DNA of 64,000 bases from Paeniglutamicibacter quisquiliarum. Lineage in GTDB: Bacteria; Actinomycetota; Actinomycetes; Actinomycetales; Micrococcaceae. Positions 5,806-23,144 of this stretch are shown piece by piece. The stretch covers positions 186,001 to 250,000 of the forward strand of contig NZ_JAHRED010000004.1 of assembly GCF_019084045.1 (NCBI RefSeq), given 5' to 3'. The notes below the pieces were generated by a model that saw nothing but the letters and a program-made list of their open reading frames with translations, did no database searches and was not told where the DNA came from. The first letter of the stretch is position 1; every line of letters starts with the position of its first letter. Made by a program: the position numbers and the translations under genes.

Positions 5806-8800
5806 TCACAACATCCCAACTCGTACCAAGTGTGGATCCGATGACACCACCGATTCCGGCAGAACCCCACAGTGCAGTGGTGTTCCTCTGACCCAAGTTT
5901 ACGAAAGTTCCCTGGAACGTTCGCGGTTGCTGGTACGGGAGCCGTCGCAGTACATCGAAATTGGTCTGTGTCACCGACCCGGGCAGGCGTATGAGCGGCA
6001 TGACCCCGCCTGCGCCCGCAGCCACCGCCAGGTCACCCCAGGAGGTGTCTTCGCCGGCAACAAGATTCGTTGCGGCCACGCCACTGACATTGGCGGCCGC
6101 ACTGACCCCGGACGACGAGAGGGTGGAAAACAGCGACGAAGTTGGTTTTCCCAGACGCTCGGCTATCGAACCTCCCGCAGGTCCGGCGAGGCCCCCGGCG
6201 GCACCGCCAACGAAGCCGCCCACGAACGCCCCAGCCAGTCCTCGGCCGGTCATCTCCTCGCCCTTGATCGCCTGCGCTACACCGTAGCCGCCCGAACTGG
6301 CCACCGCGCCAACGCCGCCGTTTACACCCATATTCACCGCTAAAGACTTGACCACGTTCGCGGTGGGAGCGACCCGCATGGAGGCCTGTGTTGCCATGCC
6401 ACCGACCCTCGTGGCCCTCAGCAGCATCGGAGCGGCCCCACCAACCCCGCCGAGGACCGTTGAGGCAGCAGCTTGCGCCCAGTTCACGTCCCCGGTCGTG
6501 GCCTTCTGGATTATGACGTCGGCACCACCGGCCATCAACGCCATGCCGACCGGCCCGCCGACGCCGGTGAACATCAACGCACCGCCGGCGACCACCATTG
6601 CGCCACCGACGACGTATTCCCAGTTCTCTACAAACCAGTCGCCCGCCGCGGCCATGGCGCCGTTGTTGCCGTCGCGGTACGCCTGCAGTTCGTCCTCGGT
6701 GACCGGACGCAGGCCCAAGGGATCGATCGCGTGCAGCGGATCGTTGCCGGCATAGGAATACGGGTTTCCGGACCAACCGGAACCCACCACCGGATCCAGC
6801 GGATCAACCGACAGGAACCCGCGCGTCATCGGGTCATATGCCCGGGCGCCGAACCAATCCATCCCGCCCACCTGCAACCCGCCGGACGCACCCACGCCCA
6901 GCCCGGCAGGAAGGCCCGGGAGCGCGTCCGATGCCATGCCCCACGGGCTGCCCGCCTCCGTCGGATGCGCACTGCGCCACCCGGCGGAGAGCACCGTACC
7001 GCCAATCGCCGTCACGCCGCCGGGCAGGGCCACCACCGACTGGTCACCGACGGACATCACCCGGGGGGCAACCTCCGCAGAATCCCACCAGACCTCGGCG
7101 CCGTCTACGTCCGCCAACTCGCCGAGCGCGTCCACCCACAACTCGCTGCGGGAGGATGCCCCGGATGGACCCTCCGTTGCCACGGCGGACAGCCAACCGC
7201 GCGGGGACCATTCAAAGGACCGCACCGAGCCATCTGGCTCCACGGTCTCGGTCCGGCGACCCAGCCCGTCGTAGGCATACGTGCTGGTCCCGGCCGCGTC
7301 GGTGCGGGAACGCAACTGGCCCGCGGCGTCATAGGCGAGCTCCGCGGCAAGCCCTTCAACCGCTTCGTCCACCAAGCGGCCGGACAGGTCATAGCGCCAC
7401 CTGGACACCACGCCGTCTTCGCGCTCCGAACGCTCCAGCTGGCACGCGGCGTCATAGAAGAAGCGGGTTTCGATGCCGTCGGCAAGGATCGCGGCGATGC
7501 GCCCGTCCCCGTCCCGGCGAATCACCGTCTCCTCAACGCCGTCAATGGTTGTCCTCGCGTGACGCACCAGCGCGCCCTCGGCATAGTCCCAGTTCTGCAC
7601 CGCATGGCTGGCGACTGCGCCGACCAGGCGTCCGGCTCCATCGCGCTCGTAGGAAATCCGTCCGAGGACCGGGTGCTCGACAACAACCACGTGTCCGGCG
7701 GCGTCATGCCCGAACTCCGTGCGCGTCCCCTGCGGGTCCACCATTGCGGTGCGGTTTCCGTCCGCGTCGTATTCCCATGACGGGCCGCGCCCGTCACGCA
7801 GCCGCTCGATGAGTTGCCCGCGGCGGTTGAAGCGCAACAGCTGCTCGACCTCGACACCGTCTTCCCGGGTGAGGTCGGTGATCCGCACGGTGCGAGAGCG
7901 TGCATCGCGACCGATCTGCATCAGCGTCTGCCCGTCGACGCCCAGGGATACCTGGCGCCCCGCCGCGTCATAGGTCCACTCGGTGCGCCGGCCCTCCGGG
8001 TCGCACTGCCACAGCTGGCGCCCCGCCGCGTCAAAGCCCGCGGTGATCGTCCGGCCCAGCGGATCCGTTTCCGAGACGACCTGGTCGGATTCGTTGTAGG
8101 CCCGGCGCGTGGTGGCACCCAGCGGGTCGGTGACCGTGGTCAGGCGTCCGCGCGAATCGTATTCGTAGCGGGTCTTGCCGCCCAGGCCGTTGACGGCCTC
8201 GATGAGTTGCCCCGCCGCGTCGTAGCGGAACCTGCGCCGCCCGAATGACGAGTCGACGGCACGGACCAGGCGCCCGGCCAGGTCGTACTCGAAGCGCGAG
8301 GTGCCGCGCCCCGGGGTGTAGCGGGAGACAACGCGGCCGACGGCGTCGTATGCCAGGCGCTCCGTCTCCCCTCCCGGGAAGACGCGGGCGACGACGCGGG
8401 ACTCGGCGTCGTATTCCAGGGTGGTGCGCGCACCGGTCGGGTCGATGCTCGCGGCCGGGCGGCCGGCGGCGTCGAACTCGAACCGGGTGACGGCCCCGCC
8501 CGGTGAGCGGTGTTCGATGACCCGGCCGGCGGCGTCGCGGCGCAGCAGGGTGAGCCCGCCGTCGGCGTTCACCAGCTCCACGGGGCGCCCGCACGCGTCG
8601 TAGGTGGTCAGCTCTGTGCTGCCGTCGGCACGCTCGGAGGCCACGGGGCGGCCAAACTCGTCGCAGCGCACGCTACTGCGCTCGAACGCGTCCCGGACCG
8701 TGACGGTTCCCGTGGCCGCGTCGGCCGAAATCTGCTGGCGCACGCCCGTGGGGTCCACCACCGCGGTGAGTTCGCCGTTTTTGTTGTACTCGCGCGACCA

Positions 8801-11278
8801 GGCGTGCCCCGCGGGGTCGGTGACCTGCGTCAGCCGGGCCAGCGCATCGTGGACGAAGCTCCACCGGGCGCCGTCGGGAAGCTCGAGGCCGGACACGTTG
8901 CCCAGGTCGTCGAAGCTGCGCGTGACGGCCCGTCCCAGCGGGTCGACGGTGCCGGTGAGCTGGCCGTGGGAACCGTAGTGCATCTCGGTGCGGGACCCGA
9001 GCGGGTCGATGACCACGGCCAGGGCTCCGCCCGGGGCGTACTCGAACTTCCACAGGGCGCCGTCGGCATCCCGGCGGGAGCGCAGCTGCCCGTTTGCGTC
9101 ATACAGGTAGGTGGTCCGGGCACCGCCGGGGGACACCGCCTCGGTGACCCTGCCCGCTGCATCGCGGTGCAGCGTCGCGGTGTTCCCGAAGGCATTGGTG
9201 ATGGTCGCCAGGTCGCCGTGTGCGTCGTGGCCGAAGCGCACGGCCACGCCGACCGGGTCGACGATCTTCTCCAGCAGGCCCTCACGCCAGTGCAGCTGCG
9301 TGCGGCCGCCCTCAGGGTCGATGACCAGGGAGGGGTTGCGGGAGGAGTCGTCGGCATATTCGTAGGTCACCAGGGCGCCGGACTCGGTCACCACGGTCAC
9401 CGGCCGGTCGGCGTGGTCATAGCCGTAGGTGATGTCGGCACCGCTCGGGGTGCGGGTGCGGACCTTCCGGCCACGCTGGTCGTAGGCGTGCACCGTGAGG
9501 GCACCGTCGCGCTCGGTGACGGAGACCAGGTTGCCGTAGCGGTCATAGCTCATGGACTGGCGCGCGTCGTTGGCGTCAATGACGCCCACCAGGCGGCCCC
9601 GGGCATCGGCGATCCAGGCGTTGGAACGGGTCCCGTCCGCATCGGACACCACCGTCAGGCGGCCCGGCAGGTAGGCGAACCGGGTCACGCGGCCGAAGGC
9701 CGAGACCTGGGTGAGCACCCGTCCGTGCTCGTCATAGGTGTTGACTGCCTCTTCGACGCCGGCGGCGTCGGTGACGGCCTCGATCAGGCCCGCGTCGTTC
9801 CAGCGGTAGCTGCGCACCCCGCCCGGCCCGGCGGCGGAGAGCAGCTGCCCGTTCTCGTCGTACTCGAACTCCACGCGGCGCCCGTCCGAGGCCATAAGCA
9901 CGGCGATCCGCTCGCCCGCGAATTCGGTGCGCACCCAGCGACCGCGTTCGTGCCTTAGTTCGGCGATGCGGCCCTCGTCATCCCGGCTCACCAGCAGCGC
10001 TGTCCCGGGGCCGGTGTCCGAAGACAGCCAGGTACCGGCCGCGGTGAACACCCAGCGGGCTCCGGCGTTGTCGCGCACCACGAGAACCTCGGCGGAATCC
10101 GCCGCGTATTTGTCGAGCTCCTCGTCATTCAGGGTTTCGCGATTAAGCCAGGAGCTTTCCCCGTCGGCCCGGTCCCAACCCTCGCCGAGGCGGGGGAACC
10201 ACAGGTGGCGTCCATCGGCCAGCACCATCCAGGCGCCCTCGTCCTCCAGCTCGAGGCGGGTGTCAAACACCGAGGCCCAGCCTGTCCCGAAGGAACCGAC
10301 CCGCTCGTCCAGGCAGTTGTATGTGCGAGCGGCCGACAGTGACGACGCCGCACCCGCGAATCCGAGGTCCACCTCGGTTTCCAGGAAGTTGCCGGTGGAG
10401 GTGTTGACCGGGTCGTTGGAGTAGCCGGTCGTCGGAGGGGCGCCGAGGGCAAAAGCAGCATCGATGGCGATGTCCTGGCGGGTCGCGCCGACCCCTTGGG
10501 CGGCGAGGGCGGCCAACAGCGCCGAGTCGGCGATCCGCGAGACGTTACCTTCGCCGCCGGCGGCGGCGAAGGCGTTGGCAATCGTCAGGGCCCACGCCAC
10601 GTCCTGGTCGTTGGCCTCGAGCCACTTGTCGAAGCCGTTGACGACACCGCTGGCGTTCAGCGAGCCATGGCTGCAGCGGGCGGCAAAGTCCGCGAGGTGG
10701 CTGCGCAATGATGCAGGCTTGCCGGCAAGTTCACTATTGAGGTTCGCCGATCCCGTGGCGAAGGAACGCAAGTCGCTGGGGCGTGCAGCGGAGACGCCGG
10801 CATTGGAACCGCCGCCCGGGGCGGGCGTTTGCCTCACGCCGGTCACGGGGGTCGAGGCCTGGATGCTCACTTCCTGTGCCGGCGGCCCGACTGGAGGGTC
10901 CTCCTCACCGAAGACCATGTCCCATCCCTTGAGGAGGATGTTGTCTTGGCGTTCTTCGCGGCGCTGTTTCCATTCGCGGGCCAGCCGGCGGCGTTCGTTT
11001 TCCTTGCGGGCTTCTTCCTTCAGCGAATTGGCGCCGGTGGCTGCCTCGCGCAAACGTGCCGCGAGCTCGTTCGCGTCCGCGGACGCGACGCGTGCATTGT
11101 CTGCAAAGAGCTTTGAGAAATGCCCCTGGAACTCGGCTCCGGCCGTCGCCACCAGGGAGGACCGGGAACCTGACTGTCCCTCAATCTTGGATGCGGCGAG
11201 GTTGAACGCCGAAATCAATGCGTCTGCCGTCCCGTTGTCAAACACAACGTCATGTTCAAAGACACCCAGATCGGCCAC
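5798..11278 (-). CDS. Rhs/YD-repeat polymorphic toxin with WXG/LXG-like N-terminus
   Basis: This 1826-aa protein has three parts. Residues 1-115 form a helical, charged export-like module similar to WXG/LXG N-termini of type VII effectors, with a linker to about 285. A DUF6531-type start (PVNTSTGNF, 290-298) leads into dozens of YD repeats (GRVxxxxxPxGxxTxYxYD pattern). The Rhs core closes at about 1460-1520 with RAYDPMTRGFLSVDPLDP and ending in NDPLHAIDPLGL. The last ~305 residues are Gly/Ala-rich and hydrophobic, with no nuclease, deaminase or protease motif I can see. The GTG start has GAGGGAG eight bases upstream. It follows a WXG100 gene and overlaps an immunity-like gene, so it is probably a secreted antibacterial toxin. 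Confidence 0.9.
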   Translation of the reverse strand: MADLGVFEHDVVFDNGTADALISAFNLAASKIEGQSGSRSSLVATAGAEFQGHFSKLFADNARVASADANELAARLREAATGANSLKEEARKENERRRLAREWKQRREERQDNILLKGWDMVFGEEDPPVGPPAQEVSIQASTPVTGVRQTPAPGGGSNAGVSAARPSDLRSFATGSANLNSELAGKPASLRSHLADFAARCSHGSLNASGVVNGFDKWLEANDQDVAWALTIANAFAAAGGEGNVSRIADSALLAALAAQGVGATRQDIAIDAAFALGAPPTTGYSNDPVNTSTGNFLETEVDLGFAGAASSLSAARTYNCLDERVGSFGTGWASVFDTRLELEDEGAWMVLADGRHLWFPRLGEGWDRADGESSWLNRETLNDEELDKYAADSAEVLVVRDNAGARWVFTAAGTWLSSDTGPGTALLVSRDDEGRIAELRHERGRWVRTEFAGERIAVLMASDGRRVEFEYDENGQLLSAAGPGGVRSYRWNDAGLIEAVTDAAGVEEAVNTYDEHGRVLTQVSAFGRVTRFAYLPGRLTVVSDADGTRSNAWIADARGRLVGVIDANDARQSMSYDRYGNLVSVTERDGALTVHAYDQRGRKVRTRTPSGADITYGYDHADRPVTVVTESGALVTYEYADDSSRNPSLVIDPEGGRTQLHWREGLLEKIVDPVGVAVRFGHDAHGDLATITNAFGNTATLHRDAAGRVTEAVSPGGARTTYLYDANGQLRSRRDADGALWKFEYAPGGALAVVIDPLGSRTEMHYGSHGQLTGTVDPLGRAVTRSFDDLGNVSGLELPDGARWSFVHDALARLTQVTDPAGHAWSREYNKNGELTAVVDPTGVRQQISADAATGTVTVRDAFERSSVRCDEFGRPVASERADGSTELTTYDACGRPVELVNADGGLTLLRRDAAGRVIEHRSPGGAVTRFEFDAAGRPAASIDPTGARTTLEYDAESRVVARVFPGGETERLAYDAVGRVVSRYTPGRGTSRFEYDLAGRLVRAVDSSFGRRRFRYDAAGQLIEAVNGLGGKTRYEYDSRGRLTTVTDPLGATTRRAYNESDQVVSETDPLGRTITAGFDAAGRQLWQCDPEGRRTEWTYDAAGRQVSLGVDGQTLMQIGRDARSRTVRITDLTREDGVEVEQLLRFNRRGQLIERLRDGRGPSWEYDADGNRTAMVDPQGTRTEFGHDAAGHVVVVEHPVLGRISYERDGAGRLVGAVASHAVQNWDYAEGALVRHARTTIDGVEETVIRRDGDGRIAAILADGIETRFFYDAACQLERSEREDGVVSRWRYDLSGRLVDEAVEGLAAELAYDAAGQLRSRTDAAGTSTYAYDGLGRRTETVEPDGSVRSFEWSPRGWLSAVATEGPSGASSRSELWVDALGELADVDGAEVWWDSAEVAPRVMSVGDQSVVALPGGVTAIGGTVLSAGWRSAHPTEAGSPWGMASDALPGLPAGLGVGASGGLQVGGMDWFGARAYDPMTRGFLSVDPLDPVVGSGWSGNPYSYAGNDPLHAIDPLGLRPVTEDELQAYRDGNNGAMAAAGDWFVENWEYVVGGAMVVAGGALMFTGVGGPVGMALMAGGADVIIQKATTGDVNWAQAAASTVLGGVGGAAPMLLRATRVGGMATQASMRVAPTANVVKSLAVNMGVNGGVGAVASSGGYGVAQAIKGEEMTGRGLAGAFVGGFVGGAAGGLAGPAGGSIAERLGKPTSSLFSTLSSSGVSAAANVSGVAATNLVAGEDTSWGDLAVAAGAGGVMPLIRLPGSVTQTNFDVLRRLPYQQPRTFQGTFVNLGQRNTTALWGSAGIGGVIGSTLGTSWDVVSD

Positions 11279-12441: not shown

Positions 12442-15400
12442 GTGGCCAGCACACGACCACGTAAGACGAACGCCGCACGAACACCGAGCTCGAAGCTGGT
12501 CCGAACTGCAGGCGCGATCCTGACGGTGGCCGCCGTGGCATTCACGGCCTCGTGCACCAACGCACCCAACGTCGTCGGCACGCCGTCGCGCGTGCTGCAG
12601 TCGGTGAACGTGGCCCTTGCCTCCAACGGATCGATCTCGGCGGTCAACGGGACAGCCATCTCCGTGGACGACACCACGGGAGAATCCTCGAGCGCCGATA
12701 CCGCCTATGTTCCGGGCGAGGTCGCCAACGACCTTCCCGTCCGGGTGAGCGCGCAGTACCGCACCGCGGAGAAGACGGGCACCAACCTGGAGGAGCTGGC
12801 CGGCTACACCGGCCGGGTCGAGATCGGTTTGACCGTGGAAAACCTGACGGTGGCCCCGCGCGACGTGACCTTCGATGTGGCAGGCCAGTCACGCACCGAA
12901 CCGGTACTCGTGGGTGCTCCGATGACGATCGCCGCCTCGACGGTGCTCTCCGGCGTCTCCCCCGGCAACATCGTGGGCGAATCCGGGCCCGGCTCCGCCG
13001 GGACCAACGGCATCATCAGCGCCTCTCCCGAAGGCGAGGCCGTCATCCAGTGGGCAACTCTCCTCGCCCCTCCGGCCACGGGTGCCAGCACCACCATGCG
13101 CCTGGTCGCCGACGTCACCGAATTCGCCGCTCCGAGCATCGATCTGGCCGTCCAACCGGGCATGTCCACCGACCTCTCGGTCGATGGAGTGCTGGCCTCC
13201 GCGTTCGACACCAGCCCCACCTCCGAGCTCGCCCTGCAACGGCGCACCATCGACCTCATCGCCGAAGTCAACGACGTGCTAAGCCGCGCGGGTTCCACCA
13301 TCACCGACGTGCGCGGCAACCTCGAGAGCACCTCGAAGACCCTGGGCGTCAGTACCGCCGCCCACCTGAAGGAGAGCAGCGACTCGCTGGCCGGAACCCT
13401 TAGCGGCCTGAAGGACCAGCTCGGCTCGCTCAAGACCGACCTGGATTCCACCGTCACCGGGGCCGAGACCACGACGCTCGCGCAGCTCTCCCAGACCGTC
13501 AACACCGTCGACGCCATGCTGGGCGACACCTCGGTCGGCGTGCCGAAGGCGACGATCAAGGGCAACGGCTGCGCCGCAATCGTTGCACCCGCTGGCGAAA
13601 CCGCGACCGTCTACTCCAGCCTCGTGCTGATGTCCGCCCAGCTGGACGGCTACGCCCGCTCGACCGCAGGCTGCCGCGACGAAGTTGCCACCGCGCTGCA
13701 GAAGACCGTTGGCCCCTCTGAGCCCAACGCCGAGAACTGCACCGTGGCATCCCTGACCTGCGCGTTCCACGCGTCCTCGATCACCGTGACCGGTGCCCTG
13801 CTGAAGCTTGTGGACCAGGGCGACAAGCTGGTCGCAACGCTTCAGCCCGAGGTCATCACCGGCGCGCGGGCACAGCACCGGCTCCTTTCCGACGGAATCG
13901 ACGAGCTTGCCCTAAAAGTCGACGCTTTGGACGAGGCGGCGGCCACTGGCGATGCCAACAAGGAACAAGAAGCCAAGGCTACCAAGGTTGCATTCCAGGA
14001 ACTTAGGGACACAGTCAAGAACGTTGAATTTCCAGTTGATGAACTGAAAACGGCAATCGACAACCTGGTCACGGACGAGCGGGCTAAAAACGAGAAGATC
14101 AATACGATCGCTACAGAAACGATCAAGCTCGTCGAGGACCAGAACTTTCCGTTGAATCTGAAAAATCCATGGGTCTACGAGCCAATTGAACACACGAACA
14201 CGCTCGACTCAATGACCAAGCAAAATGACAACCTTGCAGCCGAAATGTGCGACCTGATACCCGCGGATGCCGACGCTGAGAGCTCGCCATCCGAAGCGGA
14301 CATCGACAAGGCTCCCTCGCGTGAGGACATCGAGGAGCTTCGGTCATACCTGACCTCGATTCCGTGCCGCGGCACGGACCCCGAAACTTTTGAGGACCTC
14401 GCGAAGGACCCTGAGCCACTACACGAACGGATGCAAAACTTAGCCGATGACCTAGACGATCAGGCTACTGAGCAAACCGAAGCGTGGACAAAATGGGCCG
14501 ATAATGAGACCGCGACATGGGACGCCCGTACCGAGCGTCATGCAGCGACGCAAGTCGCGGCGTGGGAAAAAGTTGCAAAGCTGGCCACCGAACCAGTCTC
14601 GGACGGCCCCGTGTACGATGCGATCGACAAATCCAATTCGAGCCTGACAGAGAGCCTTGAAGCCGTCAGCACCAAGGTTGAAGAACTAGACGGCACGTTG
14701 AAAGTCGGCGGCAGCCTCCGAGACGAAATCGAAGTACTTCGCAGGACCGTGGATGATGCCAAAGCAAGCCGGGACTCCATGGGTGAGGCGCTCCTGACCC
14801 TGCAGAAGCAGCAGGACACACTCGAATCAGGCATCACGCAGGCCTTCGAGAACACCCAGATGGCGATGACCGAAGAGGTCACCGCGCTGATCAACAGCCA
14901 GATTCGCGTCGTCTCCGCCCAGGGCGCGGAGGGCAGCGATGCAGTCGTGAAGGCATTCGACCGCTCGGTCGCCGGTTTGTCCTCGACGGCCGCCGACGTG
15001 GAAGCCAACGCCAAGACCACGGTTGACAAGCAGCACGACGAACTTGCCAAGCAGGATGCCGGCTTGACCGAGGCAGTCAGCAAGCAGACCGCCGCCTCGC
15101 TCGAGGGCATCGCGCAGAGCACCGGAGCCTCGACGCGGGATGTCGAGGGCGCCTCGAAGCTTCTGGCTGCCGGACTTTCCAAGGTCATGCTCGACCTAGG
15201 CGACCGCAAGGTCAACGGGTCCGGCCTGCTCGGATCGATGGCCACCAGCGCTGCAAAGGCCGACACGGCCGACTACCAGCTGGCGCTGGCCACCAAGAAC
15301 GCCCAGGGCTACGCGAACGTGCGGGCCGAGGACGTTGCAGGGATCCTGCTGCGCCAGGCGCAGTTCAAGGCCTCCCTCGAGGCGGTGTCGGCACTGCCGA

Positions 15401-15474
15401 CCTTCCACCTTGAGGTGCCGGCGGGCACCGCGACCCAGACGCTGTACTCCTTCCGTCTGGGAAGTGCCAAATGA
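12442..15474 (+). CDS. Large coiled-coil lipoprotein of the secretion-like locus
   Basis: This 1010-aa protein starts at GTG 12442, preceded by GGGGAG at 12433-12438. A basic N-region and hydrophobic helix end in a relaxed lipobox (FTASC), so it is probably a lipid-anchored exported protein. The N-terminal part (about 40-290) looks beta-rich and Ig-like, with regular Thr/Val strands. From about 300 onward it is dominated by long charged heptad-like helices, with Cys pairs around 370-440, consistent with an extended coiled coil. Its stop overlaps the next start (ATGA). I do not recognise a named family. It resembles in outline the long coiled-coil surface components of YueB/EsaA-type secretion machines, but it lacks their multi-pass membrane region. 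Confidence 0.7.
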   Translation: MASTRPRKTNAARTPSSKLVRTAGAILTVAAVAFTASCTNAPNVVGTPSRVLQSVNVALASNGSISAVNGTAISVDDTTGESSSADTAYVPGEVANDLPVRVSAQYRTAEKTGTNLEELAGYTGRVEIGLTVENLTVAPRDVTFDVAGQSRTEPVLVGAPMTIAASTVLSGVSPGNIVGESGPGSAGTNGIISASPEGEAVIQWATLLAPPATGASTTMRLVADVTEFAAPSIDLAVQPGMSTDLSVDGVLASAFDTSPTSELALQRRTIDLIAEVNDVLSRAGSTITDVRGNLESTSKTLGVSTAAHLKESSDSLAGTLSGLKDQLGSLKTDLDSTVTGAETTTLAQLSQTVNTVDAMLGDTSVGVPKATIKGNGCAAIVAPAGETATVYSSLVLMSAQLDGYARSTAGCRDEVATALQKTVGPSEPNAENCTVASLTCAFHASSITVTGALLKLVDQGDKLVATLQPEVITGARAQHRLLSDGIDELALKVDALDEAAATGDANKEQEAKATKVAFQELRDTVKNVEFPVDELKTAIDNLVTDERAKNEKINTIATETIKLVEDQNFPLNLKNPWVYEPIEHTNTLDSMTKQNDNLAAEMCDLIPADADAESSPSEADIDKAPSREDIEELRSYLTSIPCRGTDPETFEDLAKDPEPLHERMQNLADDLDDQATEQTEAWTKWADNETATWDARTERHAATQVAAWEKVAKLATEPVSDGPVYDAIDKSNSSLTESLEAVSTKVEELDGTLKVGGSLRDEIEVLRRTVDDAKASRDSMGEALLTLQKQQDTLESGITQAFENTQMAMTEEVTALINSQIRVVSAQGAEGSDAVVKAFDRSVAGLSSTAADVEANAKTTVDKQHDELAKQDAGLTEAVSKQTAASLEGIAQSTGASTRDVEGASKLLAAGLSKVMLDLGDRKVNGSGLLGSMATSAAKADTADYQLALATKNAQGYANVRAEDVAGILLRQAQFKASLEAVSALPTFHLEVPAGTATQTLYSFRLGSAK

Positions 15475-16805
15475 GTTCCCTCGCCACCCGCCGAAACCTC
15501 ATTTCGGCAGGCGTGGTGGTCGTGGCAGTCGCCGCGATCATTGCGCTGTCGGTCTTCCTGTTCCGCCCGGCCGATGCGGCCAAGGGCGATCCGGTGGAGG
15601 CGGGCGTCCCGGTGGCGCTCTCCGCCGCCAACGTCCCGGCCGACACCAGGCTCGGCGTCGTGGTGACGCTCGGGTCCGGTTCCGGCGCCGCGTGGAAGGA
15701 TGCGGCGCAGGGCGCTGCCGTTGCCGCACACCGCTTCACCCTTTCGGGAACGCCCATCGCGCTATCCACCGCAGATGACCGCGGAACCGCCGAGGGCGCC
15801 CGCAAGGCCGTGGAAAAGCTGGTTTCCGAGGGCGTTGCCGGAATCATCGTGGCCACCGACGGCGAGCAGGTGGACGGAGCACTCGAGGCAGCCGCCGACG
15901 CAGGGGTCCCGGTGATCCTGCCCTACTACGACGGCAAGATCGAGGCCGAGGGCGCGGCCTGGCGCACCGCACCGACCGGGGCACAGGTGTCCAAGGCGCT
16001 GGCAGCCGCCCTGGCGGGCGCAAAGCGCCCGCTGCTCATCGATGCCGGGGGCGGCGCCCCGGACTCCGTGGACGTCGACTCGAGCATCTCCTTCGCTCCG
16101 GGTGCCGATCCGGAAGAGCTCGCGGCCGATGTCGCCCGCCGCACCGGCGTGGCGGAACCGGCGAAGGCCGACGGCACGCCCGGCCGCACCCCGGTGGCGG
16201 ACCCCGCCGATGCCATCCTGCTCTCCGGCAACCCGACCCAGCAGGCAACCGTGGTGCACGCGCTGCAATCCGCCAAGGTCACGGTCCCCCTGGTGCTGAC
16301 GCCCGGGGCCACCAGCCCCGCGTTCGCCTCCGGGCTCGCACAGGCCGGCGGCACCGTCTCGGGCCGGCTCTCCACCGTCGGCGCCAACGCGGGCGACGCC
16401 GCGGCCCTGCGCCCGGATGACTCCGGCCGCGCCATGTCCGGATTCCTGGCCGGCCTGCGCGTCCTGGCGCAGGACAAGGAAGCCAAGAACCTCACCGGCG
16501 ACATGGCCTTCAGCGAGGTCGCGAATGCCGCCGACTCGCGCAGCCACGACGCCGTGGTGGCCCTGGTGCGCGCGGTGTCAACCGCCGGCAGCAACGACCC
16601 GGCCAAGGTGGCCAAGGCGCTCGGTACGCTGAAGCCGGGCCCTGCCGACGGCATCGCCGGTCCCGCACTTGACTTCACCCGACCCGACGCCATGGACGGG
16701 GACCCGGTGGTGCTGCACTTCTCGGCGCAGGACCTGGGACTGCGCCCCACGGCCACCGGGGACGGCGCGACCGCCTCCTGGTTCGCCCGCCCCTCCGCCG
16801 ACTGA
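15471..16805 (+). CDS. Membrane-anchored periplasmic-binding-protein-like protein
   Basis: This 444-aa protein has an N-terminal transmembrane segment (about 10-32) that lacks a lipobox. The body resembles a type I periplasmic-binding fold: DTRLGVVVTLGSGSG, then repeated alpha/beta units such as GVAGIIVATDGEQVDGALEAAADAGVPVILPYY. The start overlaps the lipoprotein stop by 4 bases, so the two are probably made together. No ABC permease or ATPase of the amino-acid type is nearby. A structural or sensory role in the adjacent FtsK/SpoIIIE machine is therefore more likely than solute uptake. That role is inferred from context only. Confidence 0.65.
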   Translation: MSSLATRRNLISAGVVVVAVAAIIALSVFLFRPADAAKGDPVEAGVPVALSAANVPADTRLGVVVTLGSGSGAAWKDAAQGAAVAAHRFTLSGTPIALSTADDRGTAEGARKAVEKLVSEGVAGIIVATDGEQVDGALEAAADAGVPVILPYYDGKIEAEGAAWRTAPTGAQVSKALAAALAGAKRPLLIDAGGGAPDSVDVDSSISFAPGADPEELAADVARRTGVAEPAKADGTPGRTPVADPADAILLSGNPTQQATVVHALQSAKVTVPLVLTPGATSPAFASGLAQAGGTVSGRLSTVGANAGDAAALRPDDSGRAMSGFLAGLRVLAQDKEAKNLTGDMAFSEVANAADSRSHDAVVALVRAVSTAGSNDPAKVAKALGTLKPGPADGIAGPALDFTRPDAMDGDPVVLHFSAQDLGLRPTATGDGATASWFARPSAD

Positions 16806-16837: not shown

Positions 16838-19800
16838 GTGCGCGTGCTGATCCGGCTGGATGGCCAGCGACTTGACCGGGAGCTGGGCAGCTTCGCTCCC
16901 GGCACGACGCTCGCGCAACTCGTCGCCGCCGCCGGCGGCAGCGCCCCGGCACCGGGCTCCACGCTGTACGTGGACGCCGCCGCGGTGCCCGCCGACACCC
17001 CGCTGGAGGAGTTGCTGCTGCTGGAGGGCAGCACCATTTCCCTGGCTCCCCTCCCGCGCCCGGAACCGGTGCGCGGCTGGAGCGCCACGCTCTCCGGCGG
17101 GATGGAGGCCGGGGACCTGGTTCCGCTGCCGGCGCACCGGCCGCTGCTCATCGGCCGCTCCCCGCAGGCGGACCTGGTGCTGGGAACCGAAAGCGCCTCC
17201 TGGAACCATGCAAGCCTCGAGCTCGAGGACGGCGGCGTGCGCGTCAGGGACGCGGGATCGACCAACGGCACGCTGCTCGCCGGGGAGCCTGTCGACGCCG
17301 ACGGCGTGCTTCTCACCTCCCCTGCCACCCTGGTCATGGGCGGAACGACGGTGCTGCTGCGCCCGGAGATCACGGAGAACCGCGCCCCGGAACCCGGCTC
17401 CCTGCACAACCTCACCCCCGCCGCCACCGCGCCCTTCAACCGGCCCCCGCGCCCGGGAAACCCGCCGGAACCCGACCCCTTGACCCCGCCGGTGCGCAAG
17501 GACGTCCCGCCGGCCTCCAAGTTCAGCTACATCACGGTGCTGGCCCCGCTGCTGCTTGCAGGGGCCATGGTGATGATGCTTGGAGATGCCCGCTTTGCGA
17601 TGTTCGCCGCACTGAGTCCGGTCATGGCCGTGGGCATGTGGTTCGAGCAGAAACACCGCCGCGCCAAGAACCTCAAGGAAGAGGACGAGCGGTTCACCGC
17701 CGCCCTGGCCGACTTCTCCGCCGAGGTCGCCGAGGCCGCCGCCGCCCAGGCCACGCGCCGCCACGCCGAAATCCCCGACCCCGCCACCGCCATGCGCATC
17801 GCCGCGCTGCCCACGACCGGGCTGTGGCAGCGCAGGGCCGGTTCCAAGGGTTTCCTGGCGCTGAATGCAGGGATCGGCGACGTGCCCTGGGCACCGGGGC
17901 TCGATGACCGCTCCGCCCCGGTGCCCGACCCCCTGGTGCGCGAGGCACTGGCTGCCAGCCGGATCCCCGCGGCCCCCTTGCTGGTGGACCTCACCGACGC
18001 CGGCGTCGTCGGCATCGTCGGGGACCGCGCCGGGGCCCTGGCCCTGGCCCGCTCCCTGCTCGTCCAGGCCGCCGTGCATGCCGGGCCCGCCGACCTGTCC
18101 ATCGCGGTGTTCTGCGACCGCGGGCGCCACGAGGAGTGGGCCTGGGCCTCCTGGCTGCCGCACACCCGCCGGCTCGGCACCGGCACCTCCGAACGCTGGC
18201 TCTCGGACGACCGGCGGCGCAGCGCCGCCCTGCTCCGCGCCCTGCGCGAGGGCATCGACGATTCGGCCGGCGGCACCACGCTGCTGGTGCTCGACTCCGA
18301 GGTGCTCACCGAGGGCCGCGACGCCCCGGCGCGCGAGCTCTTGGGCCACGGCCGCTCGGTCCCCGGGCTGGGCGGGCGCGGCCCCGGGCAGGGACCGCGG
18401 GTCTCGGGCATCGTGATTGCCGCCTCCGAGCAGCAGCTGCCCGCCGCCTGCACCACCGTCATCACCGTGGGGGCGGACGCCGCGGCGTCGGTGCACGACC
18501 TCGGCGCACTCACTGACGTGGGCGACGTGGTGCTGGCGGGCATCGGCATCGAGGCCGCCGAGCGCTGCGCCATGGACCTGGCGCGCTTCGACGACCCGGA
18601 GCTGGTGGTGCCCGGCGCGGCGCTGCCCTCCCTGGTCCGGCTGCCCGAGCTGCCTTCCATGCCCTCCCCCGATGCCGCGTCGATCCGCGCGGCGTGGGCC
18701 AAGGCCAAGGGGTTCTCCGCCCCGATCGGCACCTCCGAGTCCGGGCCGATGTCCCTTGACCTGGTCAAGGACGGGCCGCACGGGCTGGTCGGCGGCACCA
18801 CCGGTTCGGGCAAGAGCGAGTTCCTGCGCTCGCTTGTCGCCGGGCTCGCTGCCCGCAACGACGCCACCAGGCTGAACTTCATCCTCATCGACTTCAAGGG
18901 CGGCGCCGCGTTCGCCGCCTGCGAGGCGCTGCCGCACACCATCGGCACCATCTCCAACCTCGACGAGCAGCTGGCGGACCGCGCGCTGCGCTCCCTCGAG
19001 GCGGAAATGGCCCGCCGCCAGCGGATCTTCGCCGCCGCCGGGGAGGACATCGACAACCTCGACGCCTACCTGGCCACCAACCCGGACGAGCCCATGCCGC
19101 GGCTGCTGCTGGTGGTCGACGAGTTCGCGATGCTCGCCAAGGACTTCCCCGAGGTGCTCTCCTCGCTGGTCTCCGTCGCGGCCGTGGGGCGAACCCTGGG
19201 CGTGCACATGATCCTGGCCACCCAGCGCCCGGCCGGCGTGGTCAACGACGACATCCTGGCCAACACCAACCTGCGGGTGGCGCTGCGCGTCCAAAGCCGC
19301 GAGGATTCCTCCAACGTCATCGGCGTGCCGGCGGCCGCCGGCATCACCCGGGCGCAGACCGGGCGGGCCTACATCAAGCTGGGGCAGGACGAGATCACCC
19401 CGGTGCAGACCGCGCTGGTCACCGGGCGCGCCTCCCGCGCCTCCGCCACCGAGCTGGTGGTCGAGGAGACCGGGCACTTCGGGCTCCCGCGCCCGCCCCG
19501 GGCCCCCGCCCCGGGCTCCGAGTCGGACGCCAGCGACCTCGACGAGCTCATCGAGGCCATCACCGAAGCCCACCGGGCCGCAGGCTTCGGGGTGCCGCGG
19601 CCGGTCTGGCCCGTGGCGCTGGGCGAGCGCGTCAGGCTCGCCGGCTTCGACGCCCCGGACCCCGCCGGCGGACCTGCCCACCGCGCCTCGGAGGTGCCGC
19701 TCGTGGGGGCGGTGAACGGGCGCCGCATCGAGGTGGCGCTGAGGGACGAGCCGGAGGCCCAGCGCCAGACCCCGGGCGGCTGGGATCTGGCCAAGGGCAA

Positions 19801-21145
19801 CCTGCTGCTGCTGGGCATCGCCGGATCGGGCACCAGCACCACGCTGGCCTCCCTGGCCCTGGCCGCCGCGGCCGCCAAGGACCCGCGGGAGCTTGACCTG
19901 CTGGTGCTTGACACCGGTTCGCGCGCCCTGGCCCCGCTGGCCGCGCTGCCGCACACGAGCGCCTACGTGGGCACCGGGCCCGGCGCCCGGGAGCAGCAGG
20001 CCCGCTTCCTGCGCCACCTGCGCACCGAGCTGGCGCGCCGGCGCGCGGATCCGGGGGCCCGCAAGGAGACGCTGGTGCTCATCGACGGGCTTGCCACGCT
20101 GCGCGACGAGTTCCAGGACTACGACGGCCAGGGGCTGCTGGACGCCCTGAACCGGGCCTACGCCGACGGGCCGGCCCTGGGCCTGTACTTTGCCGTGTCC
20201 ACCACCCGCGCCAAGGCGGTGCCCTCGGCCATCGACGAGGTCACCATCCAGAAGTGGCTCTACCGGCTCGCTGACCCCTACGACTACTCGGCCCTGGGCG
20301 TGCGCGGGTCCAACATCCCCGCCGCGGTCCCCGGCCGCTGCGTGGACGCCGGCTCGCTGCGCCAGATGCACGTGGCCACCCCCGGCACCGACCTTCCCGC
20401 CGCGGTGGCCACCGTGGCCGCGCGCTGGCCCGATGCCGAACCGAAGCCCGCTGCCATCGGCCGGCTGCCCGAGGAGCTCACCGTCGGGCAGCTCGGCGTG
20501 CCGGCGCAGCTTGGCGGCGAGCCGTGGCGCTTCCCGGTCGGGTTGCGCGAGGAGGACCTGGCCCCGGGGGTGCTGGAGGTCTACGAGGGCGAGCACGTGC
20601 TGGTCTCCGGGCCCGCGCGCTCGGGCAAGTCGACGCTGCTGCTGGCGCTGGCCGAGTCGATCCGCGGCTCGGCCGCCGCCAGCGGGCAACCTGTTGCCGT
20701 CTGGGGCGCCTGCGACAGGCGCTCCCCGCTGGCGAACGCCGACCTGGACAAGGTGGCGGTGGGCGCGGAGGACCTGCCGGCGCTGCTCGCCTCGATCCGG
20801 CTCGAGCGCGGGCCGGTGGTGCTGCTGATCGACGACGCGGAGCGCTTCGAGGACTCCGACCAGGCCCTGGCCAACCTGCTGGCCTCCTCGGCGCAGGTCT
20901 GCGTGATCGCCGCGGGCCGCTCGGCGGACCTGCGGGGTCTCTACGCGCACTGGACCAAGACGCTGCGCAAGTCGCGCTGCGGCGTGCTGCTGGTTCCCGA
21001 CGTCGACTACGACGGCGAGCTGCTGGGCGTGACCCTGCCGCGCCGCGCACCGGTGGCGGTGACCCCGGGCCGCGGCTACCTCTGCGTCGGCGGGGTCCCG
21101 ACCTTCATCCAGGCCATGGGCCCGGGCGCCGCGGCCGGCGCCTGA
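16838..21145 (+). CDS. FHA-containing FtsK/SpoIIIE ATPase (EssC/EccC-like type VII secretion motor)
   Basis: This 1435-aa protein begins with a small N-terminal domain and an FHA domain at about 103-150 (LLIGRS, WNHASLEL, DAGSTNG). Two membrane helices follow at about 231-269. Three ATPase domains come next. D1 has a full Walker A (GGTTGSGKS, about 652-660) and Walker B (LLLVVDEF, about 757-764). D2 has a degenerate P-loop (GIAGSGTS, about 993) with Thr in place of Lys. D3 has GPARSGKST at about 1258. This order matches EssC/EccC motors of type VII secretion. The GTG start has GAAAGGAG upstream. It lies in the operon with the lipoprotein and binding-protein-like genes, opposite a WXG100/Rhs operon. 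Confidence 0.88.
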   Translation: MRVLIRLDGQRLDRELGSFAPGTTLAQLVAAAGGSAPAPGSTLYVDAAAVPADTPLEELLLLEGSTISLAPLPRPEPVRGWSATLSGGMEAGDLVPLPAHRPLLIGRSPQADLVLGTESASWNHASLELEDGGVRVRDAGSTNGTLLAGEPVDADGVLLTSPATLVMGGTTVLLRPEITENRAPEPGSLHNLTPAATAPFNRPPRPGNPPEPDPLTPPVRKDVPPASKFSYITVLAPLLLAGAMVMMLGDARFAMFAALSPVMAVGMWFEQKHRRAKNLKEEDERFTAALADFSAEVAEAAAAQATRRHAEIPDPATAMRIAALPTTGLWQRRAGSKGFLALNAGIGDVPWAPGLDDRSAPVPDPLVREALAASRIPAAPLLVDLTDAGVVGIVGDRAGALALARSLLVQAAVHAGPADLSIAVFCDRGRHEEWAWASWLPHTRRLGTGTSERWLSDDRRRSAALLRALREGIDDSAGGTTLLVLDSEVLTEGRDAPARELLGHGRSVPGLGGRGPGQGPRVSGIVIAASEQQLPAACTTVITVGADAAASVHDLGALTDVGDVVLAGIGIEAAERCAMDLARFDDPELVVPGAALPSLVRLPELPSMPSPDAASIRAAWAKAKGFSAPIGTSESGPMSLDLVKDGPHGLVGGTTGSGKSEFLRSLVAGLAARNDATRLNFILIDFKGGAAFAACEALPHTIGTISNLDEQLADRALRSLEAEMARRQRIFAAAGEDIDNLDAYLATNPDEPMPRLLLVVDEFAMLAKDFPEVLSSLVSVAAVGRTLGVHMILATQRPAGVVNDDILANTNLRVALRVQSREDSSNVIGVPAAAGITRAQTGRAYIKLGQDEITPVQTALVTGRASRASATELVVEETGHFGLPRPPRAPAPGSESDASDLDELIEAITEAHRAAGFGVPRPVWPVALGERVRLAGFDAPDPAGGPAHRASEVPLVGAVNGRRIEVALRDEPEAQRQTPGGWDLAKGNLLLLGIAGSGTSTTLASLALAAAAAKDPRELDLLVLDTGSRALAPLAALPHTSAYVGTGPGAREQQARFLRHLRTELARRRADPGARKETLVLIDGLATLRDEFQDYDGQGLLDALNRAYADGPALGLYFAVSTTRAKAVPSAIDEVTIQKWLYRLADPYDYSALGVRGSNIPAAVPGRCVDAGSLRQMHVATPGTDLPAAVATVAARWPDAEPKPAAIGRLPEELTVGQLGVPAQLGGEPWRFPVGLREEDLAPGVLEVYEGEHVLVSGPARSGKSTLLLALAESIRGSAAASGQPVAVWGACDRRSPLANADLDKVAVGAEDLPALLASIRLERGPVVLLIDDAERFEDSDQALANLLASSAQVCVIAAGRSADLRGLYAHWTKTLRKSRCGVLLVPDVDYDGELLGVTLPRRAPVAVTPGRGYLCVGGVPTFIQAMGPGAAAGA

Positions 21146-21151: not shown

Positions 21152-21171
21152 GCCGCCCGGCGACGGGCGGC
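21152..21171. terminator. Bidirectional hairpin between convergent ATPase and kinase genes
   Basis: GCCGCCCG (21152-21159) and CGGGCGGC (21164-21171) pair across a 4-base loop. The hairpin lies in the 25-bp gap between the two stop codons and touches the kinase stop, so it can terminate both transcripts. It has no clear T-run. Confidence 0.5.
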
Positions 21172-23144
21172 TACTCGCGGGTGGTGATGCCGAAGGGGTC
21201 GCTGGCCAGGTCGGTGAAGTTGCCGACCCCTGCCCGCAGGATGCAGCTCGGGGAGACCGACAGCGCCGTGACCACGAGCCCGTCGGCGGAGACCGCCAGG
21301 GAACCTGAGCAGCCGTCGGAGAACCGCACGCCCTTCTCGCCCCCGGCCACCGCGGCGAGCATCGCCGAGGCCTTGCCCGTGGACGGGGAGGTGTACAGCG
21401 GGTTCAGCACGTCCGGCCCGCCCGGCCACACCGGCACCAGCGTCACCGGCAGGGCCGTCTGGCTGACCGTGCGCGCCGGGGTGACGACCTGGATGTCCCG
21501 CAGGCGCTGCACCGGGTACGCGGAGCCGCCGGCTGCGGGGTCTGCCACCGCGGCGGTGGTTGCCGCGGCCGCGCCCTGCAGCCACTGCTCCAGGGCGTCC
21601 TCGCCCACCAGCTCCACCGGGATCTTCGCGCTGGCCTCCACGCTGCCCTTGGCCGGGACGGTGATCCCGCCCAGGCTCCAGCCGCATGCCGCTGAAATGC
21701 CCGTCAGGCTCGGCTGGTTGCGTGTTGCCGCGACCTTCTCCCAGGTCGCCGGCGGGCAGGAGGCCGCTGCGGACGCGCCGGGGAGCACCTCGAGGAACGG
21801 CCCGGCCAGCGGCGCCTTCTGCGCCGCATAGGTGATGGTCAGCCGCACTTCCTTGGCCTGCGCGTCGTATTGGGCGCTGCGGGCGATGGACAGGCCGCTG
21901 GGCAGCGGGGCGTCCTGCTGGCTTGCGGTGGAATCGGCGGCCGGCGCCGCGGCCGGGGCGTCGGGCTTTGCCAGCGCCATGGCCCCGAAGACAATCGCAA
22001 CCGCCGCCACAAGCCCGCCGGCGATCAACGCGACGGCCTTGCCGGTCAGCCAGGTCGGCCGCCAGCCGGCGCGCACCGGCTCCGGTGCCGGCCGGGACCG
22101 GGGGCGCAGCTCGGGCCGCGGCATCGAGCGCACCACCGTGTGCTGGGCGGCCTCTCCCAGGTCGGGAAGGGCGGAGGCCGGGAACCCGGAGTCCGGTGCC
22201 GGTGCGGACCCGGCATCCGGCGTCGTTCCCGCGCCGCGCAGCACCGTCGCCGGACGCTCGAGGGGCGCAAACGCCTCGGGTTCGGCGGCAACCGGCAGGG
22301 CCGGCAGGTCGGCGTACCGGGCGGCCAGGCGGCGCAGCCGCGCCGCGGCCTCGGGGGCGCCGGGCCGTTGCCGCGGGTCCTTGCCCAGCAGCGCTTCGAC
22401 CGCCTCCCACACCTCGTCGGGCACCTCCAGCCGCGGCGGAATGGTGGTCACGTGGCGGTAGGCGAGGGTGAAATCGGTGCCGGTCCCGGCGAACGGGGTC
22501 CGCCCGGAGAGCAGCTCGTAGAGCATGATGCCGGTGGCGTAGAGGTCGGCGGCGGGCCCCACCTCGCCGGTGCTGAGCAGTTCGGGCGGCATGTAGGCGG
22601 GGGTGCCGACCATGCCGGTGGTGTGCCGGGCCCGTTCGTGCACGACCGAGGCGATGCCGAAGTCCGAGACGCGCACCGCCCCGGTGAGACCCGGAGCCCA
22701 GGGCTCGGTGAGCAGCACGTTGTCGGGCTTGATGTCCCGGTGCGTGGTGTTGCGGGTGTGCGCGTACGCGATGGCGTCGAGCATCTCGGCGCAGATGGCC
22801 AGGGCGTCGGCGGCGGGCAGCGTGCGGCGCTCCTGGAGCAGGTCGCGCAACGACCCGCCCGGCACGAGGTCCATGAGGATGGCGAGCCGTTCGCCCTCGA
22901 CCACGAGGTCCCTGACCGCGACGATGTTCGGGTGCCGCAACCCCAGCAGCACCGAGCGTTCCTTCACGAAGCGTTCAACGAGGGCGGGGTCGTGCGCGTG
23001 TTCCGGGCGCAGCACCTTGGCCGCGAGGTCGGGACCGCCCGAGATCGCACTGACCCGCCAAACCTCGCCCACCGCACCGGAGCCGAGGGGCTCGACGAAG
23101 CGGTAGGAGGCGCCAAGCGCGTCACCGGGCTGCACGTTTGCCAT
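21171..23144 (-). CDS. Membrane Ser/Thr protein kinase (PknB-like catalytic domain)
   Basis: 657 aa. Residues about 10-265 form a Hanks-type kinase domain: glycine loop GSGAVGEVW, AAKVL lysine, catalytic loop THRDIKPDNV, DFGIAS, and activation segment ending in GTPAYMPPE. A Pro-rich juxtamembrane region and a TM helix (about 367-390) follow. An extracellular domain of about 250 residues with paired Cys comes last, unlike PASTA repeats. It is convergent with the FHA-bearing secretion ATPase, and FHA domains bind phosphothreonine, so it may regulate that machine. Terminators on both sides show it is transcribed on its own. Confidence 0.9.
   Translation of the reverse strand: MANVQPGDALGASYRFVEPLGSGAVGEVWRVSAISGGPDLAAKVLRPEHAHDPALVERFVKERSVLLGLRHPNIVAVRDLVVEGERLAILMDLVPGGSLRDLLQERRTLPAADALAICAEMLDAIAYAHTRNTTHRDIKPDNVLLTEPWAPGLTGAVRVSDFGIASVVHERARHTTGMVGTPAYMPPELLSTGEVGPAADLYATGIMLYELLSGRTPFAGTGTDFTLAYRHVTTIPPRLEVPDEVWEAVEALLGKDPRQRPGAPEAAARLRRLAARYADLPALPVAAEPEAFAPLERPATVLRGAGTTPDAGSAPAPDSGFPASALPDLGEAAQHTVVRSMPRPELRPRSRPAPEPVRAGWRPTWLTGKAVALIAGGLVAAVAIVFGAMALAKPDAPAAAPAADSTASQQDAPLPSGLSIARSAQYDAQAKEVRLTITYAAQKAPLAGPFLEVLPGASAAASCPPATWEKVAATRNQPSLTGISAACGWSLGGITVPAKGSVEASAKIPVELVGEDALEQWLQGAAAATTAAVADPAAGGSAYPVQRLRDIQVVTPARTVSQTALPVTLVPVWPGGPDVLNPLYTSPSTGKASAMLAAVAGGEKGVRFSDGCSGSLAVSADGLVVTALSVSPSCILRAGVGNFTDLASDPFGITTRE

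What the first reader, a model, noticed from the sequence alone, without database searches (positions are those of the whole stretch)
12442..16805. Translationally coupled giant coiled-coil lipoprotein and binding-fold protein
The two genes overlap by 4 bases and precede the ATPase. The lipoprotein combines Ig-like strands with very long coiled coils and could span the thick wall. The partner has a binding-protein fold but a TM anchor and no transporter, so it may be a structural or sensory module repurposed from solute binding.
Basis: inference. Interest (0 to 1): 0.55.

Follow-up and report, generated by a model that had tools for sequence, protein, structure and literature searches.

The report
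Type VII secretion's outer sensor-stalk pair
Two coupled genes in a soil-type actinobacterium encode a long wall-side stalk protein and a nutrient-receptor-like protein that travel with one special membrane kinase inside a little-known type VII toxin-secretion system, suggesting that the secretion machine may be tuned by something sensed outside the cell.

Summary
In detail: LIPO (12442-15474) and PBP (15471-16805) overlap by 4 bases and precede an FHA-EssC/EccC ATPase. The locus is a type VII secretion (T7SS) island: RHS toxin, WXG100, LIPO, PBP, ATPase, membrane Ser/Thr kinase (STK), kept in 8 of 8 genus genomes with LIPO. Of the 80 best named ATPase loci, 23 have LIPO and PBP, always both, PBP always between LIPO and the ATPase. 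The STK ectodomain follows the pair: all three in 24 of 98 loci, none in 70; the four others are one genome split over two contigs, one broken copy and one noise hit. ATPases and kinase domains occur without them, so the three look like one outer-face module. PBP has a confident LivJ-like fold. LIPO models as a beta base, closed by its C-terminal strand, with a helical stalk. Its tip is a mosaic cassette: two genomes 98-99% identical in DNA on either side share 55% there. The closest published system is T7SSd, but its TsdI shows no LIPO similarity and the ATPases fall in separate clades. Best reading: a new T7SS variant, perhaps gated by a binding protein-stalk-kinase-FHA relay. Sensing is inferred.

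The parts
5798..11278 (-). RHS-repeat polymorphic toxin, 1826 aa, with a helical N-terminal domain; probable substrate
   Evidence: Pfam RHS_repeat 5.8e-126; its first 150 residues match separate small genes beside RHS genes in L058, L059 and L062
11426..11719 (-). WXG100 protein (EsxA/TsxA-like); an ATG lies 4 codons inside the listed TTG start
   Evidence: Pfam WXG100 E=0.0038 and TIGR03930 8.4e-4, both below cut-off; 92-99% identity in 7 genus loci
12442..15474 (+). LIPO: coiled-coil stalk lipoprotein, 1010 aa
   Evidence: no Pfam or NCBIfam family near its cut-off
12553..12555 (+). lipobox cysteine, codon 38
   Evidence: PROSITE-type pattern match
12580..13161 (+). LIPO beta base (residues 47-240)
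   Evidence: AlphaFold2 block pLDDT 69-92 from residue 51 on; aligned span 47..1008 to mu-homology beta sandwiches, Z 9.6-10.8
13927..14841 (+). LIPO hypervariable tip cassette (residues 496-800)
   Evidence: GC3 0.65 against 0.85-0.86 in the flanks; L012/L016 55% DNA identity here, 98-99% on either side
15430..15468 (+). LIPO C-terminal strand that closes the N-terminal beta base
   Evidence: DSSP strand 997-1009; aligned span 47..1008
15471..15474 (+). 4-base stop/start overlap ATGA of LIPO and PBP
   Evidence: kept in 20 of 23 named loci
15471..16805 (+). PBP: type 1 periplasmic-binding-protein fold, membrane-anchored
   Evidence: Peripla_BP_6 5.9e-13; model pLDDT 87.6, pTM 0.85; LivJ 4gnr Z 32.6, rmsd 2.6, 321 aligned
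16838..21145 (+). FHA-EssC/EccC-type ATPase, 1435 aa
   Evidence: TIGR03928 3.7e-136, below its cut-off; 4nh0 3.5e-63; FHA positions G106 R107 S121 H124 N143 G144 invariant in 7 rows
21171..23144 (-). Membrane Ser/Thr kinase with extracytoplasmic domain (TsdD-like)
   Evidence: Pkinase 6e-51; K43, HRDxKPDN and DFG invariant in 7 rows
21174..21947 (-). STK ectodomain stretch (residues 400-657) that co-occurs with LIPO and PBP
3304..5805 (-). Three related genes after the toxin (3304-4293, 4083-5012, 4984-5805) with hydrophobic parts, probable immunity genes
   Evidence: they match the same places in relatives; TgpA_N 3.3e-7 at its cut-off for 4984-5805 and 0.0052 for 3304-4293, Imm1 only 0.079 for 4083-5012

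Best explanation
LIPO and PBP are two extracytoplasmic subunits of a T7SS variant that exports a WXG100 protein and RHS toxins. With the ectodomain of the locus's membrane kinase they form one module on the outer face of the membrane. LIPO is a hairpin: its N- and C-terminal ends build a beta base at the membrane and its helices run outward to an exchangeable tip. PBP, held at the membrane by a helix or a lipid, keeps a LivJ-like two-lobed fold and most likely reports a small ligand, or a conformational state, to the base. The signal passes to the kinase, which phosphorylates a threonine read by the ATPase's FHA domain, and so assembly or firing is set. Shown by computation: locus content, co-inheritance, PBP fold, catalytic and FHA motifs, tip mosaicism. 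Inferred: physical complex, ligand, direction of signalling, secretion.
For: T7SS content: WXG100, FHA-EssC/EccC ATPase, RHS substrate; one match of the EssC family in the genome at E<=1e-60, though only 2 of 5 candidates were scored. Order kept in 8 of 8 genus genomes with LIPO. LIPO and PBP: both in 23 of 80 named loci, one alone in 0 at E<=1e-3. All three of LIPO, PBP and STK ectodomain in 24 of 98 loci, none in 70 (17 of which have a kinase domain); the 4 others are L061 (kinase about 4 kb outside the locus, in broken frames, ectodomain pieces found), L080 and L197 (one genome, two contigs) and L113 (a 19-bit LIPO hit). The LIPO/PBP label needs 5 changes on the ATPase tree with L080's genome counted as having them. 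L044, L050 and L056 keep the ATPase but their genomes lack LIPO, and no kinase match there reaches the ectodomain (best loci tested); PBP was not searched genome-wide there. Lipobox on LIPO only in 23 rows, on PBP only in 2, on neither in 4; never seen on both. Relay parts intact: catalytic kinase, FHA site, type 1 binding fold. Precedent for SBP-to-kinase signalling: GlnH-GlnX-PknG (PMC9769921, PMC6069109; abstracts and outlines seen). The top aligned chain for LIPO 467-795 is the TorS sensor from the TorS-TorT complexes (Z 13.0), only suggestive for a helical bundle.
Against: No interaction, ligand or secretion data. Co-inheritance of linked genes can reflect operon transfer without a complex. 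The LIPO model is weak overall (pLDDT 69.2, pTM 0.36). Ligand positions were not mapped, so binding may be lost. In T7SSb the FHA-pseudokinase contact appears to be phosphorylation-independent (PMC9600267 passages). The module is absent where ATPase, WXG100 and RHS remain (L050, L058, L059, L062), so it is not needed for every such system, or those systems are decaying or use other parts. Several of the 70 loci are cut short by contig ends, and some of the 98 loci come from the same genome.
Confidence: 0.5

Rival explanations
1. Purely structural: LIPO is the EsaA/TsdI counterpart, a wall-spanning stalk or conduit, and PBP is a dead binding fold used as a brace; the kinase ectodomain docks on them only for assembly.
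For: Hairpin stalk on a membrane-side beta base; the review PMC10765036 (passages) describes EsaA as an elongated dimer long enough to span the wall; TsdI was proposed to play that part in T7SSd (PMC11217815). The two ends of LIPO are its conserved parts.
Against: ATPase, WXG100 and RHS are present without LIPO in the genomes of L050, L058, L059 and L062. A full two-lobed PBP and an active kinase are unneeded for a brace.
Confidence: 0.3
2. LIPO is chiefly a surface receptor or adhesin: the tip touches prey cells, or is under pressure from phages or grazers, and PBP is its base partner.
For: Tip alleles are exchanged: L012/L016 98-99% flanks, 55% tip, while their PBPs are 99.5% identical in DNA; the same in Curtobacterium L040/L041, protein identity 0.84/0.42/0.87; lower GC3 in the window's tip type. 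YueB, the T7SSb counterpart, serves as receptor for phage SPP1 (PMC9600267). Tip type does not follow the toxin: L012, L016 and L017 have a toxin end related to the window's (37, 37 and 67% identity), L011, L013, L014 and L015 show none, yet L011 has the window's tip type and L016 has not.
Against: Does not explain PBP or the kinase ectodomain. The tip's outward position is only modelled. Two other close pairs (L035/L052, L054/L055) show no swap.
Confidence: 0.15
3. PBP is an ordinary ABC solute-binding protein that happens to stand beside a secretion locus.
For: Fold and Pfam family.
Against: Fixed place between LIPO and the ATPase in all 23 named loci and the 8 genus loci; no locus with PBP but without LIPO was found, within the limits of the searches.
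Confidence: 0.03

Closest known systems
T7SSd (TsdA, TsdC, TsdD, TsdH, TsdI; Garrett, Higginson and Palmer 2024, PMC11217815)
   Same: Actinomycetota; WXG100, FHA-ATPase with phosphothreonine site, membrane Ser/Thr kinase, large surface protein with Ig-like part, RHS substrates, no ubiquitin-like gene seen in the island
   Different: No TsdI-like or TsdH-like gene seen in the island; LIPO has no C-terminal membrane helix and its profile finds no TsdI; PBP is new; the ATPase lies in another clade than that of a TsdI-bearing locus (L163)
T7SSb (Ess/Yuk: EsaA/YueB, EssB/YukC, EssC/YukB)
   Same: FHA-bearing ATPase, kinase-like membrane partner, long extracellular stalk (by function)
   Different: EssB is a pseudokinase, EsaA a polytopic membrane protein; no PBP; the only EsaA-family match in the genome is below cut-off and present in all 15 genus genomes
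GlnH-GlnX-PknG (actinobacterial amino-acid sensing)
   Same: Solute-binding lipoprotein linked through a membrane protein to a Ser/Thr kinase; that its target OdhI/GarA is an FHA protein and that GlnH lacks a permease is recalled
   Different: PknG is cytosolic (recalled), GlnX has four membrane segments, and the output is metabolic; no homology was tested
TorT-TorS (TorT as a type 1 binding protein: recalled)
   Same: Binding protein paired with a helical sensor domain; LIPO 467-795 aligns to the TorS sensor (Z 13.0)
   Different: TorS is one protein with its kinase; the alignment is within the range seen for unrelated helical bundles

Membership tests
Type VII secretion system (general) | WXG100 protein encoded with the ATPase | tested here: met
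   Two HMM families, below cut-off, but WVG/WDG-type motif and strong conservation among relatives
Type VII secretion system (general) | Membrane FtsK/SpoIIIE ATPase of EssC/EccC type | tested here: met
   TIGR03928, TIGR03924, TIGR03925 (below their cut-offs) and PDB matches
Type VII secretion system (general) | Secretes WXG100 and toxin substrates | not testable with these tools
   needs a secretion assay
T7SSd | TsdI: large envelope protein, signal peptide, C-terminal membrane helix, Ig-like repeats | tested here: not met
   LIPO ends in a strand, not a membrane helix; LIPO profiles find nothing at E<=1 in the G747 and G733 stretches and nothing at E<=0.001 in those genomes
T7SSd | TsdC ATPase clade | tested here: not met
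   Window ATPase in a 42-row clade (SH-aLRT 100) apart from rows L163/L165 (quick tree, no bootstrap); that L163 is T7SSd is my assignment from gene content
T7SSd | TsdH, small single-helix protein | tested here: inconclusive
   No convincing gene in 11715-12450 or between the island's genes; elsewhere in the genome not searched
T7SSd | TsdD kinase and FHA phosphothreonine site | tested here: met
T7SSb | EsaA | tested here: not met
   TIGR03929 only below cut-off, on another contig, in 15 of 15 genus genomes, and it also rings in C. glutamicum and L. lactis controls
T7SSa | EccB | tested here: inconclusive
   0 of 15 genus genomes, but no control genome rang
ABC transporter solute-binding protein | Type 1 binding fold | tested here: met
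ABC transporter solute-binding protein | Encoded with its permease/ATPase | tested here: not met
   Direct neighbours are LIPO and the T7SS ATPase or STK wherever both sides are in view; in L197 the contig ends after PBP
ABC transporter solute-binding protein | Binds a solute | not testable with these tools
   needs a binding assay

The most novel reading that the evidence does not exclude
A type VII secretion system gated by an environmental ligand: a transporter-less solute-binding protein and a coiled-coil stalk with exchangeable tip drive a membrane kinase that licenses the secretion ATPase through its FHA domain. It would be an undescribed T7SS subtype with its own sensory apparatus.
Probability: 0.35. 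Interest if true: 0.8.

Novelty: new variant of a known kind. Interest (0 to 1): 0.6.

Why it matters
What tells a type VII system when to fire, and what replaces the known envelope parts in the actinobacterial variants, are open questions. Here three outer-face proteins are inherited as a set, one of them with a classic ligand-binding fold, next to a kinase with intact catalytic motifs and an ATPase with an intact phosphothreonine-binding motif. That makes signal-controlled type VII secretion directly testable in harmless soil and leaf bacteria. The exchangeable stalk tip adds a second question: which outside partner drives its diversity.

Tried and rejected
LIPO as a homologue of TsdI: the LIPO profile gave no match at E<=1 in the G747 and G733 stretches and none at E<=0.001 in those genomes. 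LIPO as EsaA. Profile of LIPO against PDB sequences: 282 matches at E<=1, of which the 60 shown are almost all helical or coiled-coil proteins such as apolipoprotein A-IV and SMC, taken as coiled-coil noise. Foldseek on LIPO: weak mu-homology and coiled-coil matches. Ubiquitin-like fold for the ATPase's first 90 residues: BAG1 ubiquitin-like domain at E 0.18 and 0.66, SLBB in Pfam at 0.0014-0.013, left open. L147-L156 (output partly cut) show ATPases and no LIPO or PBP; L155 has two large proteins with membrane helices at both ends, TsdI-like in shape, not followed up. L148 was first taken for T7SSd, but its ATPase passes the T7SSb cut-off and its neighbours look T7SSb-like. STK-like kinases of G005, G008 and G012 are not island parts: no LIPO, PBP or ATPase in the stretches fetched and no ectodomain. 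A first statement that window, L012 and L016 share one toxin end was corrected: the ends are related at 37% identity.

Literature: no paper listed described a binding protein or such a stalk in a T7SS by title and start of abstract; only PMC11217815 treats the actinobacterial variants. One search was uninformative: 92 papers, 15 listed, none of these holding the term type VII secretion. Only openly licensed papers are held and supplements could not be read, so whether Garrett et al. had such loci among their T7SSd accessions is unknown.

One search leaves out L017 from its averages. The ATPase tree used 54 of 142 kept sequences, quick method, no bootstrap.
Full report
1. Observation. The two genes are real, at the stated coordinates. 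LIPO (12442-15474, GTG start) ends and PBP (15471-16805) begins in the same ATGA. PBP is followed after 32 bases by a 1435-aa ATPase (16838-21145). In the seven other genus genomes that carry LIPO the order RHS toxin, WXG100, LIPO, PBP, ATPase, kinase is kept (8 of 8 with the window). In L012 and L016 an extra WXG100-immunity cassette with an RHS fragment stands between WXG100 and the full RHS gene, and the kinase runs off the fetched stretch. LIPO was found in 8 of 59 relatives, the window's own included, all in its genus, and in 3 of 297 genomes of the order; PBP in 1 of 396 genomes of the phylum at E<=1e-10, the window's own. Few candidates per genome were scored, so these are lower bounds. 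The pair is rare but scattered.

2. What the locus is. The ATPase matches EssC and EccC families (TIGR03928 3.7e-136, TIGR03924 2.2e-113, both under their curated cut-offs) and solved T7SS ATPases (4nh0 3.5e-63, 9qks 3.5e-54, EccC5). It has an FHA domain whose GR, SxxH and NG positions are invariant in seven relatives. The divergent gene is a WXG100 protein and the next an RHS toxin, followed by three related genes that look like immunity genes. The convergent gene is a membrane Ser/Thr kinase with intact catalytic motifs. This is a T7SS island. One EssC-family match was found in the genome at E<=1e-60, this one, with 2 of 5 candidates scored.

3. Relatives. Of the 80 best named ATPase loci, 23 hold LIPO and PBP: 6 Arthrobacter, 1 Frigoribacterium, 7 Curtobacterium, 1 other Microbacteriaceae, 2 Rothia, 1 Arachnia, 1 Winkia, 2 Actinomycetaceae, 1 Microlunatus, 1 Nocardioides. 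None holds only one of the two at E<=1e-3. LIPO, PBP and ATPase are consecutive in all 23, with 3 to 114 bases between PBP and the ATPase match, and the LIPO/PBP overlap is 4 bases in 20 of 23. Two further loci came from the order search: L031 with the same order, and L030, where the pair and the kinase face the other way from a divergent ATPase.

4. The third partner. I split the kinase alignment and searched the ectodomain (residues 400-657) alone in 98 loci. All three (LIPO, PBP, ectodomain) occur in 24; none in 70, of which 17 do have a kinase domain; four are mixed. Of these, L080 and L197 are two contigs of one genome that has all three; in L061's genome the kinase lies just outside the locus and, like its LIPO, is broken over several frames, with ectodomain pieces present; L113 is a 19-bit LIPO hit that I take for coiled-coil noise. 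Some loci share a genome and some are cut by contig ends. On the ATPase tree (54 rows) the LIPO/PBP label needs 4 changes, or 5 with L080's genome counted as having the pair. L044, L050 and L056 lie beside or inside the main LIPO/PBP clade, yet their genomes lack LIPO and none of their kinase matches reaches the ectodomain (best loci tested). PBP was not searched genome-wide there. So the parts come and go together while the ATPase stays. I read this as one extracytoplasmic module; linked inheritance without contact remains possible.

5. Folds. PBP models well (pLDDT 87.6, pTM 0.85) and superposes on branched-chain amino-acid binding proteins (LivJ 4gnr Z 32.6, rmsd 2.6, 321 aligned). LIPO models poorly overall (pLDDT 69.2, pTM 0.36), but its beta domain is better, and the C-terminal strand 997-1009 aligns as part of it (span 47..1008, Z 9.6-10.8 to mu-homology sandwiches). 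Hence a hairpin with both ends at the base. Residues 760-918 form one predicted helix; at 1.5 angstrom per residue that is about 24 nm (my arithmetic). The top alignment for 467-795 is the TorS sensor domain from the TorS-TorT crystals (Z 13.0, rmsd 2.8, 133 aligned), which is within the range of chance for helical bundles but fits a partner of a binding protein.

6. Anchors. By a PROSITE-type pattern 23 of 29 LIPO rows have a lipobox, and none of the 22 of their PBPs examined does; in L030 and L049 (and L061's PBP) the lipobox is on PBP; 4 of 29 rows have it on neither by this pattern, although L047's PBP comes close to it. Where PBP lacks it, it has a strongly hydrophobic N-terminal stretch, in several Curtobacterium rows after a charged leader, so a membrane anchor rather than a cleaved signal is likely there. 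That the lipid moves between partners suggests that they act as a unit (inference).

7. A mosaic tip. Among seven genus copies, LIPO residues 501-800 average about 50% identity and dS of 0.87-1.21, against 79-98% and 0.28-0.55 elsewhere in LIPO. L012 and L016 share 98% and 99% DNA identity before and after but 55% within; tip types group window+L011+L012, L013+L014+L015, L016 and L017, unlike the flanks. GC3 of the window's tip is 0.65 against 0.85-0.86; it is low in L011 and L012 too, less so in the other types. Curtobacterium L040/L041 show the same (0.84, 0.42, 0.87 protein identity), while L035/L052 and L054/L055 do not differ there. This looks like allele exchange at the presumed outer end. 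The tip does not track the toxin: L012, L016 and L017 have a toxin end related to the window's, L011, L013, L014 and L015 show none, yet L011 shares the window's tip type and L016 does not. It does not track PBP either: the PBP genes of L012 and L016 are 99.5% identical.

8. Mechanism. Most likely PBP and LIPO set the kinase, and the kinase sets the ATPase through its FHA domain. Intact motifs and the PBP fold are shown; every step between them is inferred. Precedent for the logic is GlnH-GlnX-PknG, where a solute-binding lipoprotein acts through a membrane protein on a kinase (abstracts of PMC9769921 and PMC6069109; that the target is an FHA protein is recalled). Against it, in T7SSb the FHA-pseudokinase contact seems to need no phosphorylation (PMC9600267 passages), and ATPase, WXG100 and RHS genes occur without the module in L050, L058, L059 and L062. 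Garrett et al. note that in T7SSd the phosphothreonine site is conserved (PMC11217815).

9. Comparison with the known. T7SSd is closest (PMC11217815; abstract, end of Introduction, Methods, Results and Discussion read). I found a locus fitting its description in G747: FHA-ATPase, a 1592-aa protein with signal peptide and a membrane helix near its end, and a kinase; that it is T7SSd is my assignment. LIPO shows no profile match to that TsdI, and the ATPases separate with SH-aLRT 99-100. So the window's system works like T7SSd in outline, but I do not file it as T7SSd. No paper listed in the held library's searches described a binding protein in a T7SS.

10. Verdict. Sensing is the best but unproven reading.

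Noticed in passing
window 13927-14841; L012, L016: LIPO tip is a mosaic cassette exchanged among close relatives, with low GC3 in the window's type; also seen in Curtobacterium.
   Followed up: yes
L012 11244-13599; L016 6392-8757: Two genus loci carry a second WXG100 copy, an RHS fragment and an extra immunity-like gene: an orphan toxin cassette beside the island.
   Followed up: partly
L030: LIPO, PBP and the kinase with ectodomain stand beside a far more divergent FHA-ATPase (31% identity to the window's), which suggests that the module can be paired with another ATPase lineage.
   Followed up: partly
L061, L198 (Nocardioides ungokensis): LIPO and the kinase are each split over several frames; sequencing error or decay not decided.
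   Followed up: partly
window 16838-17113: The first 90 residues of the ATPase precede the FHA domain and may be ubiquitin-like (BAG1 UBL at E 0.18), which would matter since T7SSd lacks a TsxB gene.
   Followed up: partly
G000:C4:53680-54072: A below-cut-off EsaA N-terminal-type match in a 789-aa frame, present in all 15 genus genomes whether or not they have the island; probably a YhgE/Pip-type protein (name recalled).
   Followed up: partly
window 1156-2349: Protein with a weak LPXTG wall-anchor match (E 0.0042) upstream of the immunity-like genes.
   Followed up: no
L058, L059, L062: Solirubrobacter and Actinoplanes loci have the ATPase, WXG100, an RHS gene with a separate helical partner gene, and a kinase, but no LIPO, PBP or kinase ectodomain.
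   Followed up: partly
L155 80-3700 and 16095-19934: Two large proteins with membrane helices at both ends lie within 20 kb of an FHA-ATPase; TsdI-like in shape.
   Followed up: no
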